NCBI GenBank assembly: GCA_027066455.1 | Contig: JAMONT010000037.1 | Location: 1 to 41,308 of the forward strand | Length of the DNA: 41,308 bases | From: Candidatus Altimarinota bacterium | GTDB lineage: Bacteria; Patescibacteriota; Gracilibacteria; BD1-5; UBA6164 | Direction of reading: 5' to 3' | Part shown: in pieces, positions 12,496-27,971 of the stretch | Layout: each line of letters opens with the position of its first letter | Position numbering within the stretch: the first letter of the stretch is position 1 | The notes under the pieces: model-generated | Database searches by the model: none | The model's input: only the letters and a program-made list of their open reading frames with translations | Told to the model about the DNA's origin: nothing | Position numbers and translations under genes: made by a program

Positions 12496-12524
12496 TTGAC
12501 TTTTTTGTTTATTTTGTATATAAT
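12496..12524 (+). promoter_or_regulatory. Near-consensus sigma-70 promoter of small RNA 1
   Basis: -35 TTGACT at 12496-12501 and -10 TATAAT at 12519-12524, spaced 17 bases. This is the best promoter in the window with optimal spacing. The predicted start is A at 12531, giving a transcript that begins ACAAAAAA. Confidence 0.85.
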
Positions 12525-12530
12525 GTTTAT

Positions 12531-12605
12531 ACAAAAAAGGTGTGTTGGCCTGTGGAGAGTGTAGCGTATGCGCACTCTGTGAAGCAGGGGAAACCCCTTT
12601 TTTTT
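12531..12605 (+). ncRNA. Structured small RNA 1, partner of DUF3800 gene
   Basis: A 75-nt GC-rich island between a near-consensus promoter and a run of eight T. The RNA folds as one long imperfect hairpin. The lower stem is AAAAAAGG...CCTTTTTT. Next come CCTG/CAGG (12549-12552 / 12585-12588), an internal loop TGG / GTGAAG, then a perfect 6-bp stem AGAGTG/CACTCT (12556-12561 / 12573-12578), topped by a small GC-GTAT-GC hairpin. It shares the blocks GCCT(A)GTGGAGA and TCTRTGAARC(T)AGGGGA with the RNA at 27858-27937. Both lie tail-to-tail with a DUF3800 gene. It codes for no credible peptide. I considered 4.5S SRP RNA, but the Ffh-binding loops are absent. Confidence 0.8.
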
Positions 12606-12606
12606 G

Positions 12607-13227
12607 TTATTCTAAAATTATAAAACTAATTTCTTCATTTACAAAATATTCTATAAAATCACTATCTATCTCTTCTCTTTTAGTAATATAAACATTATTT
12701 AATTTTCAAGCAACAAAATCAGAAAACTTAATTCATCAATATTTTTTTGAATTACCAAAAGTAAAAGTAAATTTACTTTTTTTTATTAAACTTTTTTTCT
12801 CATTTAAAAGTTTTTTTATTTTTTCTTTTTTATAATCAAGCTTTATATTATCTGCAATAATATTTATTGTTTCAAATTTTTTATTCAAAATATTAGAATA
12901 TTTTAATGTATGATAAATTAAAATTTTTAAAGATTCAAAATAATTTTTTCAACTTTCCTTATAATTTTTAGCAAAAATTCAAATAAATTGAATTTGTTTA
13001 GAATATTTACTATATTTTATAAAATTATAAAAATACTCTATTTTATCTCTATAATTTCTATCATAACTTTTTATTTCTCAACCTTTTTCTTTTATTCAGG
13101 TATGGTTCAAAAAATCACAATAAATTTTATCAATAGTTCAAGGTTTTAAACTTGTAACCAAACCTGCTAAAATAAATTTTCATCATTCTTTATGTAAAGC
13201 CTTACTCTCATCTAAGAATATATACAT
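12607..13227 (-). CDS. DUF3800 family protein, copy 1
   Basis: 206 residues. It opens MYIFLDESK, the DUF3800 N-terminal signature (hhhDESG) with Lys for Gly, and ends with the family motif GGIKFSDFVAGKLNN (cf. lqlADlvAg). The spaced acids Asp6, Glu7 and the C-terminal Asp suggest an RNase H-like metal site; this is inference. It is paralogous to the protein at 27221-27859, sharing SGTIDKIY..FL, K(G)EIKS.DR.Y..KI and the C-terminal motif. The stop codon lies one base from the end of small RNA 1, encoded on the opposite strand. DUF3800 proteins are common on mobile and defence islands, with no settled activity known to me. Confidence 0.85.
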
Positions 13228-25406: not shown

Positions 25407-26006
25407 ATGCCTTTACTATTTTTAATAGCTTACCCACTTTTTGCTTGGTATTTATTTAAAACAACAAAAAATCAAGTAAAAAATATCCCTTGAAATATAA
25501 AATTTTTAGGAATTATGGGTTTTGTTTTTTTGTATTTATTTACATTATATAACAATATTATTCAAAATGATTTCATAAGATGAGAATGAGAAGAAATATA
25601 TTTTTATACTTTATTAATAATTTGTATAACTTATATTTTCACATTTTTTATTTACAAATCTAAGTATAAAGATATTTTAGAAAATGATGTAGATTTTTAT
25701 TTAAATCAACAGTATATTTCAAAAAAAGAATTTATAATAAATTTTATTTTTTTTCTAATTCCAATTTGAATTTCACTTTTTTGGTTTTTTAAAATATGAG
25801 ATAAAATTTTTCAAGCAATCTTTATGGATCAAATATCTTTAGTTGAAATATTATATGTTTATTTAATTTTTTATTTTTTCATAGCTTCAATTTATTGATT
25901 TTTTGCTACAATAGAAAAATATACTCAACAAGGAATTATAAAAAAAATTAAAAAAGAAATTGGATTTGAAGAAAAAGTTAGAGAAAAATTAGAAGAAAAA
26001 AAATAA
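25407..26006 (+). CDS. Five-helix membrane protein, tandem copy 1
   Basis: 199 residues with about five hydrophobic segments (3-17, 33-49, 68-84, 112-133, 150-175) and a charged C-terminal helix (IIKKIKKEIGFEEKVREKLEEKK). It shares long identical stretches with the next gene, including KYKDILENDVDFYLNQ and YISKKEFIIN, and both end ASIYGFFATIEKY plus the charged tail. The spacer before the ATG is also duplicated (TTTTAATTTAATAACTTA). No family recognised; a membrane accessory or immunity-like role cannot be distinguished. Confidence 0.72.
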
Positions 26007-26046: not shown

Positions 26047-26667
26047 ATGTCTTTACTATTTTTAATAATTTACCCACTTTTTGCTTGGTATTTATTTAAA
26101 AAAACAAAAAATAAAGTAAAAAATATTCCTTGAAATATAAAATTTTTAGGAACTATTGGTTTTATTCTTTTAACTCTTTTTGTGCTTTATAATAATAAAG
26201 ATCTTTTTATATTTGAAAATGATAGTGTTTTTAGGAGTATGTATCACGATAGTATTATGTATCCTTTTAGTTTTCTTGTGATTTTAATAGTTTATATTTT
26301 TACTTTTTTCTATTATAAATTTAAATACAAAGATATTTTAGAAAATGATGTAGATTTTTATTTAAATCAACCATATATTTCAAAAAAAGAATTTATAATA
26401 AATCTTGTTTTTTTACTTACTGTAGCCTTAACTTTTAGTTATTCAATACTTCAAATGGGTTTTAAAAAATTTCTTATTTTCTCTTTAAGTGCTGATACTT
26501 TAATAGATTTACTTTTTATATATATACTTATGTTTGCATCAATAGCTTCAATTTATTGATTTTTTGCTACAATAGAAAAATATAATAAACAAAGAATTAT
26601 AAAAAAAATTAAAGAAAAAGTTGGATTTGAAGAAAAGATTAGGGAGAAATTAGAAGAAAAAAAATAA
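26047..26667 (+). CDS. Five-helix membrane protein, tandem copy 2
   Basis: 206 residues, a clear paralogue of the preceding gene with similar ends and a more divergent middle. The loop after helix 2 (LYNNKDLFIFENDSVFRSMY) and the segment after YISKKEFIIN differ most. The ends and the upstream spacer remain nearly identical, so this is either a recent duplication with fast loop evolution or gene conversion of the ends. Only two glycine codons are TGA here. The gene downstream is a decayed endonuclease on the other strand. Function unknown. Confidence 0.72.
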
Positions 26668-27220: not shown

Positions 27221-27859
27221 ATGATAATTTATTTAGATGAATCAAAAAAAATAAATAAATGAAAAAAATGACAATATATTTTTTGATGATTAATTACAAC
27301 ATATAAATCATGAACAATTGATAAAATATATAATGAATTTTTAGAATATGCTTGAATAAAATATAAATGAGAGCTAAAAAGTAATGATAGATTTTATAAA
27401 GAAAAAATAGATGTTTTTTATGAATTTTTAGAATTAAAATGATATATGAAAAATATTGAGTTTTGTTGAATTTATATTGATGAATACAAAGAAAATTGAG
27501 AAAATTATATTGAAATGTTAAGTATTTTATCTGAATTTATTATTGAAAAAAGTAAGTTTAAAGGTAATTCTTTTTCAAAAATTCAAATAATGTCTGATAT
27601 TATAAAACTAGATAAAAAGGAAAAATATATAAATAAACAATTGAATTGTAATTTAGTTAATTTAAAGAAAAAATATTGTATAAAAAATATTTTGATTGAT
27701 TTTTATAATTCAAAAAATTATTGATGAATAAAATTTTCTGATTTAATTGTTTGAATTTTAAGAAAACAATATATAAATAATAAAGAAAAATTAGATTATG
27801 AATTTACTCAATATTTCATAAATAAAGAAATAAAAATTATAAAATATTTAAATAAATAA
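27221..27859 (+). CDS. DUF3800 family protein, copy 2
   Basis: 212 residues. Opens MIIYLDESKK (DUF3800 signature, Lys for the usual Gly) and closes with YGGIKFSDLIVGILRKQYIN. Shared with copy 1 are FGGLITTYKSGTIDKIYNEF, GELKSNDRFYKEKIDVFYEF and the C-terminal block; the middle (about 100-160) is more variable. The acids near the N-terminus and in FSDL are candidates for a metal-binding nuclease-like site (inference). The stop codon overlaps the poly-A/T tract that terminates small RNA 2 on the other strand. It sits beside a dead Mrr-type endonuclease, a typical defence-island setting. Confidence 0.85.
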
Positions 27860-27937
27860 AAAAAAGAGCATCCCCTAGTTTCATAGACTACAGAATCACT
27901 CCATGATCTCCACTAGGCAAAAATCTCTTTTTTTTGT
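27858..27937 (-). ncRNA. Structured small RNA 2, partner of DUF3800 gene
   Basis: An 80-nt RNA read from the minus strand. It begins ACAAAAAAAAGAG and ends CTCTTTTTTTT, so its ends pair. Inside are CCTAG/CTAGG (27917-27913 / 27878-27874), an internal loop TGG / ATGAAA, then AGA/TCT and an apical hairpin (ATCA tggag TGAT). Blocks GCCTAGTGGAGA and TCTATGAAACTAGGGGA align with small RNA 1 (GCCTGTGGAGA, TCTGTGAAGCAGGGGA). RNA 2 has one extra A on the left arm and one extra T on the right, adding exactly one base pair. That paired change argues for a conserved fold rather than chance. Confidence 0.8.
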
Positions 27938-27943
27938 ATAACT

Positions 27944-27971
27944 ATTATATTAGACTTTTAAAAAATTGCAA
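27944..27971 (-). promoter_or_regulatory. Promoter of small RNA 2
   Basis: On the minus strand, TTGCAA (27971-27966) and TATAAT (27949-27944) are 16 bases apart. The seventh base past the -10 is A at 27937, giving ACAAAAAA as for small RNA 1. Confidence 0.75.

What the first reader, a model, noticed from the sequence alone, without database searches (positions are those of the whole stretch)
27221..27971. Second DUF3800 gene with a second RNA of the same family (locus 2)
Fifteen kilobases away the same arrangement recurs on opposite strands: a DUF3800 paralogue and an 80-nt RNA, tail-to-tail, with promoter TTGCAA-16-TATAAT and the same first bases (ACAAAAAA). The RNAs share GCCT(A)GTGGAGA and TCTRTGAARC(T)AGGGGA. 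Relative to RNA 1, RNA 2 has an added A and an added T that pair with each other (CCTG/CAGG becomes CCTAG/CTAGG). The apical parts differ in sequence but both form a hairpin. Two independent protein-RNA pairs with a paired change make chance unlikely and suggest that each RNA is matched to its own protein.
Basis: seen in the sequence. Interest (0 to 1): 0.9.

Follow-up and report, generated by a model that had tools for sequence, protein, structure and literature searches.

The report
Nuclease genes paired with kink-turn RNAs
In a group of tiny uncultured bacteria (Gracilibacteria), a predicted nucleic-acid-cutting enzyme is always encoded tail-to-tail with its own small bent RNA, and enzyme and RNA are inherited together as matched pairs, which points to an uncharacterised RNA-controlled nuclease module.

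Summary
The window (genetic code 25, TGA=Gly) holds two DUF3800 genes, each abutting, tail-to-tail, a 75-80 nt RNA gene with its own promoter and terminator. The whole genome has four such RNAs and four such genes, all paired; one gene is frameshifted. A covariance model finds 18 RNAs in 10 of 288 class genomes, all in one family. Seventeen lie tail-to-tail with a DUF3800 gene of this subfamily (11 intact, 6 decayed). The eighteenth, a blind hit, lies beside a DUF3800 gene of another subfamily. No gene of this subfamily lacks the RNA. Stems P1-P3 covary on the RNA strand, and RNA types track protein types (Mantel r 0.87). New here: the conserved GGAG/RUGAA core matches a Kt-7-class kink-turn, and the protein model is closest to RNase HII, with a conserved D-E-D-D set. 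No Rfam family matches the RNA, although DUF3800-associated RNA motifs are a known kind. Best explanation: a two-component ribonucleoprotein in which the kink-turn RNA binds and controls its cognate RNase H-fold nuclease, probably like a toxin and its RNA antitoxin. Binding and toxicity are inferred, not shown. I found no guide sequence and no mobile-element ends.

The parts
27221..27859 (+). DUF3800 gene 2 (212 aa, TGA=Gly), RNase HII-like nuclease fold; conserved D6, E7, D126, D174
27858..27937 (-). RNA2, predicted 80-nt transcript, tail-to-tail with gene 2; outer stem P1 ends in the U-tract
   Evidence: covariation
27944..27971 (-). RNA2 promoter, TTGCAA-16-TATAAT
27909..27911 (-). RNA2 kink-turn, non-bulged strand GGA
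   Evidence: coordinates; conservation
27880..27885 (-). RNA2 kink-turn, bulged strand L1-L3 (UAU) plus GAA
   Evidence: coordinates; conservation
12607..13227 (-). DUF3800 gene 1 (206 aa, TGA=Gly), 47% identical to gene 2; starts 18 bp after miaB
12531..12605 (+). RNA1, predicted 75-nt transcript, tail-to-tail with gene 1
12496..12524 (+). RNA1 promoter, TTGACT-17-TATAAT
12554..12556 (+). RNA1 kink-turn, non-bulged strand GGA
12578..12583 (+). RNA1 kink-turn, bulged strand L1-L3 (UGU) plus GAA

Best explanation
Each unit is a two-component ribonucleoprotein module: a ~200 aa RNase H-fold (RNase HII-like) nuclease of family DUF3800, plus a dedicated ~80-nt RNA transcribed towards it from its own promoter. 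The RNA is one closed rod (P1, P2, kink-turn, P3, apical loop) whose outer stem is also its terminator. The kink-turn bends the rod sharply, and the variable P2/P3/apical sequences give each pair its own identity. Most likely the RNA binds its cognate protein and keeps the nuclease in check, like a toxin and its RNA antitoxin, with release under stress or phage attack. Shown here: the pairs, the RNA fold and its strand, and co-inheritance. Predicted: the protein fold (model) and the kink-turn (sequence rules). Inferred: transcription, binding, inhibition, toxicity and the trigger.
For: Obligate pairing: 17 of 17 loci of this protein subfamily have the RNA, in 9 genomes, plus a blind RNA hit beside another DUF3800 subfamily. 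Conserved RNA fold on the non-coding strand: 190/208 pairs canonical against 167/208 on the gene strand; covariation. Promoter-like and terminator elements at each RNA. RNase HII as best fold match (1eke, E 1.8e-6, probability 1.00) with D6, E7, D126, D174 conserved. Matched types (Mantel r 0.866). Kink-turn consensus GAA 16/16 and GGA 15/16, with RNA1 meeting the published folding rules (PMC8191799). Precedent for the mode of action: the structured abiF RNA neutralises its neighbour toxin by direct binding (PMC12373285). Decayed genes keep their RNA (6 loci), as an antitoxin would.
Against: No expression, binding or toxicity data. The RNA is single, not repeated, and convergent, unlike known type III antitoxins. 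The decayed-gene pattern is no test: the gene is about 8 times the larger mutational target, so 6:0 is expected with probability about 0.49, and some frameshifts may be assembly errors. Co-inheritance alone could give the matched types. The protein model is of middling confidence (pLDDT 68).
Confidence: 0.45

Rival explanations
1. RNP effector: the RNA is a required subunit or specificity factor of the nuclease, activating or targeting it (a defence or RNA-processing complex), rather than an inhibitor.
For: All the pairing and co-inheritance evidence fits equally well. RAGATH-18, whose kink-turn region aligns with RNA1, is the guide-RNA scaffold of the RNase H-fold nuclease IS607 TnpB (PMC11061315). 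DUF3800 occurs as an accessory nuclease in CRISPR loci (PMC10910872, PMC12669027).
Against: No guide: the RNA ends at its own terminator and has no variable tail; apical loops are only 3-8 nt. RNA persists where the gene is decayed, though that is weak evidence.
Confidence: 0.3
2. Antisense control: the RNA acts mainly by base-pairing with the 3' untranslated end of the convergent DUF3800 mRNA, as in convergent type I toxin-antitoxin pairs.
For: Tail-to-tail arrangement; if gene transcription runs past the stop codon, the mRNA would hold the full complement of the RNA.
Against: The RNA's own fold is what is conserved, with G.U pairs on the RNA strand that become A.C on the mRNA strand. A kink-turn is conserved although antisense pairing does not need one. 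The RNA types follow the protein types, and the protein is not a small hydrophobic peptide.
Confidence: 0.1
3. Homing or mobile element: the DUF3800 nuclease and its RNA spread as a cassette into intergenic sites of conserved genes.
For: Patchy occurrence (10 of 288 genomes). Four loci adjoin ribonucleotide reductase or thymidylate synthase genes and two adjoin an Elp3-like gene, as free-standing homing endonucleases of phages often adjoin nrd and thy genes (own knowledge).
Against: Comparison with cassette-free nrdA loci of the same genus shows no common ends or clean empty site, only variable DNA after the nrdA stop codon. No match in the phage, plasmid or viral collections, though those searches read TGA as stop.
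Confidence: 0.1

Closest known systems
DUF3800-associated RNA motifs (Rfam DUF3800-I RF02969, DUF3800-IX RF02968 and others; Weinberg et al. 2017, doi 10.1093/nar/gkx699)
   Same: Structured RNAs found next to DUF3800 genes; the association with putative ncRNAs is cited in PMC10910872 and the families are listed in PMC11701678.
   Different: No DUF3800 family of Rfam 15 matches these RNAs even at E up to 10. [quoted passage not shown]), so not in a DUF3800 motif. The Weinberg paper itself was not held, so its gene orientations were not compared.
RAGATH-18 RNA / IS607 TnpB reRNA (RF03064)
   Same: Best sub-threshold Rfam hit of RNA1 (21.0 bits, E 0.039), aligned on CCUGUGGAG/UGAAGCAGG, the kink-turn region; partner protein is also an RNase H-fold (RuvC) nuclease (PMC11061315).
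   Different: Far below the gathering score of 44.9; no 3' guide; partner is DUF3800, not TnpB; convergent orientation.
Type III toxin-antitoxin and the abiF/RCd22 system
   Same: A structured RNA beside a toxic protein gene, neutralising by direct binding (PMC12373285): the proposed way of working.
   Different: Antitoxin repeats are described as a key feature there, and the RNA precedes the toxin gene on the same strand; here the RNA is single and convergent. Toxicity not tested.
RNase HII
   Same: Fold (first 13 PDB hits are RNase HII/H2) and an adjacent D-E plus two further D residues.
   Different: No significant sequence match to RNase HII in Pfam or PDB; extra conserved E-L-K-S and N-S-K blocks; a dedicated RNA partner.

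Membership tests
Pfam PF12686 DUF3800 | Profile score above the curated cut-off (21 bits) | tested here: met
   25 and 32.1 bits for the two window proteins; 34.4 and 24.1 bits for G011 and G027
RNase HII-like nuclease (RNase H fold) | RNase H fold | tested here: met
   Predicted model, pTM 0.71; Foldseek 1eke E 1.8e-6, probability 1.00
RNase HII-like nuclease (RNase H fold) | D-E-D-D catalytic residues | tested here: inconclusive
   D6, E7, D126, D174 conserved, but their geometry was not superposed on RNase HII and no activity was measured
Rfam DUF3800-associated RNA families | Covariance-model score above the gathering threshold | tested here: not met
   None at gathering; no DUF3800 family at E up to 10
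Rfam DUF3800-associated RNA families | Conserved structured RNA located next to a DUF3800 gene | tested here: met
   18 of 18 RNAs
[quoted passage not shown]
   Sequence and paired flanking helices: GAA 16/16, GGA 15/16, with P2 and P3 covarying
Standard kink-turn (Kt-7 class) | Kinked fold in Mg2+ or with an L7Ae-type protein | not testable with these tools
   RNA1 meets the published rules (-1b:-1n C:G, 3b:3n A:G, 4b:4n G:U; PMC8191799)
RAGATH-18 / IS607 TnpB reRNA | Score above gathering (44.9 bits) | tested here: not met
   21.0 bits
RAGATH-18 / IS607 TnpB reRNA | Variable guide at the RNA 3' end | tested here: not met
   The RNA ends in its own U-tract
Type III toxin-antitoxin | Tandem-repeat RNA antitoxin | tested here: not met
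   Single unrepeated RNA
Type III toxin-antitoxin | RNA upstream of and co-transcribed with the toxin gene | tested here: not met
   Convergent, own promoter
Type III toxin-antitoxin | Toxic protein neutralised by RNA binding | not testable with these tools
   Needs expression and binding assays
Type I toxin-antitoxin | Small hydrophobic toxin with antisense RNA | tested here: not met
   The protein is a 206-212 aa soluble RNase H-fold model; the RNA's own fold is conserved
Known anti-phage defence (PADLOC) | Match to a PADLOC model | tested here: not met
   No match up to E 1 for four proteins

The most novel reading that the evidence does not exclude
A new type of RNA-protein toxin-antitoxin or abortive-defence module: an RNase HII-like nuclease held in check by a convergent kink-turn RNA, with several mutually orthogonal pairs coexisting in one genome. 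It would give a function to DUF3800 and to its associated orphan RNAs in general.
Probability: 0.35. Interest if true: 0.8.

Novelty: new variant of a known kind. Interest (0 to 1): 0.62.

Why it matters
DUF3800 proteins and their neighbouring RNA motifs have been known for years without a function. This set shows a tight one-RNA-one-protein linkage: several RNA-protein types in one bacterial family, up to four loci per genome, an RNA whose core matches a well-understood structural motif, and a protein with a recognisable nuclease fold. That turns 'what do DUF3800 RNAs do' into a small set of binding, toxicity and cross-reactivity tests on two pairs from one genome. It also adds another RNA with a kink-turn serving an RNase H-fold nuclease, as in RAGATH-18/TnpB.

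Tried and rejected
Rfam membership: none at gathering, and no DUF3800 family at E up to 10. Phylum-wide search: the only hit outside the family, G135 (27.8 bits), lies inside a ribosomal protein S4 gene and is a false positive. Protein relatives in viral contigs, phages and plasmids: none; these searches read TGA as stop, which weakens the negatives. The curated PF12686 search of the genome found nothing, probably because TGA is not read as glycine; alignment queries solved this. Genome contigs gave only three loci, all Gracilibacteria. Guide-RNA idea rejected: no variable tail. Mobile-element ends or a clean empty site: none recognisable at nrdA. The argument from decayed genes to toxicity was judged not significant on target size. 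Weinberg 2017 was not held.

Full report
WHAT IS THERE. The window comes from a genome with TGA=Gly (code 25). With that code gene 2 is 27221-27859(+) and gene 1 is 12607-13227(-). Both are DUF3800 by Pfam (25 and 32 bits, cut-off 21) and are 47% identical. RNA2 (27858-27937, -) and RNA1 (12531-12605, +) abut the 3' ends of the genes on the opposite strand, each with a sigma70-like promoter and a U-tract. In this AT-rich DNA a single promoter match is weak evidence, but promoter-like elements precede the RNA at all 16 loci listed.

CENSUS. A pattern from the shared blocks finds four places in the 1.49 Mb genome (contig C37 twice, C17, C5), with none for the reversed control. All four lie tail-to-tail with a DUF3800 gene, and these are the only four DUF3800 genes of this subfamily found there. 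The C5 gene is frameshifted. A first covariance model from six RNAs (R1) was searched over 380 genomes of the phylum and 288 of the class. Outside the family the only match was a false positive inside a ribosomal protein gene. Inside the family it found, blind, G008:C155, which abuts a decayed, divergent DUF3800 gene. Reading the 3' flanks of the other protein hits showed an RNA of the same plan at every one. A second model (R2, 14 RNAs) gives 18 RNAs in 10 genomes and nothing else in 288 genomes; 14 of the 18 were used to build it. Seventeen sit tail-to-tail with a DUF3800 gene of this subfamily: 11 intact, and 6 decayed by frameshift or truncation (C5; G030 copy II; G004:C36; G008:C189, C155 and C206). 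The eighteenth, G002:C21, was not found by the protein profile. It lies about 30 bp after nrdA and about 60 bp from the start of a DUF3800 gene of a different, longer subfamily (Pfam E 2e-17), head-to-head. Such long genes were found in only 3 of 48 family genomes. One of those, in an HsdM/HsdS locus of G035, has no such RNA, so the RNA is tied to this subfamily and not to all DUF3800 genes.

RNA STRUCTURE. Aligned on 14 sequences, the RNA is P1 (outer stem, whose 3' arm runs into the U-tract), P2, an asymmetric internal loop, P3 and a short apical hairpin. Changes on both sides of a pair are spread over P1, P2 and P3; one P2 pair occurs as CG, UA, AU and GC. 88% of cells pair, against 43-53% for slid partners; 53 cells have changes on both sides, against 16.5 in shuffles; the covariation score is 0.609 against 0.312 (0/500). 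Relatedness inflates the shuffle control, but the slid control keeps relatedness and stays far below. The constraint is on the RNA strand: 190 of 208 pairs are canonical there against 167 of 208 on the gene strand. The conserved internal loop reads 5'-GGA on one strand opposite 5'-NNN-GA-A on the other, which fits the standard kink-turn: three-nucleotide bulge, tandem G.A/A.G, then A.G at 3b:3n. GAA is present in 16/16 and GGA in 15/16 tabulated cores. For RNA1, -1b:-1n is C:G, 3b:3n is A:G and 4b:4n is G:U, the combination shown to fold in Mg2+ and crystallised for RAGATH-18 (PMC8191799). Independently, the best sub-threshold Rfam hit of RNA1 is RAGATH-18, aligned exactly on this element. The kink-turn itself remains an inference from sequence rules.

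PROTEIN. An AlphaFold model from four homologues (pLDDT 68, pTM 0.71) matches RNase HII first (1eke, E 1.8e-6, probability 1.00; the first 13 hits are RNase HII/H2). The conserved residues D6, E7, D126 and D174 could form the D-E-D-D set of RNase HII (own knowledge of that family; the geometry was not checked). Others have described DUF3800 as an RNase H-fold nuclease in CRISPR loci (PMC10910872, PMC12669027).

MATCHED PAIRS. Over 16 loci, RNA identity and protein identity correlate with Mantel r 0.866, p 0.0001. RNA1 and the C5 RNA are 95% identical and their proteins 61% (over the aligned fragment); RNA2 and the C17 RNA 98% and 77%; RNA1 and RNA2 only 64% and 46%. Pairs therefore travel as units. 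This is what cognate binding predicts, but co-inheritance alone would also give it.

MECHANISM. Shown: obligate association, the RNA's own conserved fold and strand, and co-inheritance. Predicted: the nuclease fold and the kink-turn. Inferred: the RNA is expressed, binds its protein and controls the nuclease. I favour inhibition (antitoxin-like; 0.45) over activation or targeting (0.3), because there is no guide and because abiF, another structured RNA beside a protein gene, proved to be a type III-like antitoxin (PMC12373285). The persistence of RNA beside six decayed genes fits inhibition, but the gene is an eight times larger target, so 6:0 is expected with probability about 0.49 ((8/9)^6); I do not count it as a test. 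Antisense control (0.1) and a homing element (0.1) are less likely; the nrd/thy neighbourhood of four loci keeps the latter open.

NOVELTY. That RNAs sit beside DUF3800 genes is known. This RNA matches none of the Rfam models, carries a predicted kink-turn, and forms several protein-matched types in a code-25 lineage: a new variant of a known kind.

Noticed in passing
G027:C15, G011:C23, G002:C21 (L045, L046, L062) and G008:C155 (L032): Four of the 18 RNA loci adjoin ribonucleotide reductase or thymidylate synthase genes (three just after nrdA, one between thyA and nrdB), a neighbourhood often used by phage homing endonucleases.
   Followed up: partly
L008 (G000:C5) and L027 (G008:C189): Two type-I loci in different genera both adjoin an Elp3-like gene, and in both the DUF3800 gene is decayed while the RNA is intact.
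   Followed up: partly
L062 1501-1578(-) and 1636-2385(+): An RNA of this family stands head-to-head with a DUF3800 gene of another, longer subfamily; its own tail-to-tail partner is absent. Replacement, or a second kind of partner.
   Followed up: partly
L083 (G035:C14), just downstream of the DUF3800 gene: A DUF3800 gene inside a type I restriction-modification operon (HsdM, DUF3800, HsdS) is followed by a different-looking hairpin region (ACAACTGG...CCAGCTGT) without a DUF3800 match in Rfam.
   Followed up: no
L002 and L003, flanks of the DUF3800 loci: A dispersed element with AATCCCCC and a CCCCCTTA...TAAGGGGG hairpin occurs in several copies around the DUF3800 loci of G022 and G030.
   Followed up: no
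L003 399-1109(+), L029 549-1166(-), L037 4035-5591(+): Mobile-element or defence-type neighbours by eye: an AbiEii-like nucleotidyltransferase, a tyrosine recombinase and an IS66-like transposase next to DUF3800 loci in three genomes (not run against family libraries).
   Followed up: no
window 25407-26006(+) and 26047-26667(+): Two tandem paralogous membrane proteins of unknown function lie just upstream of DUF3800 gene 2.
   Followed up: no
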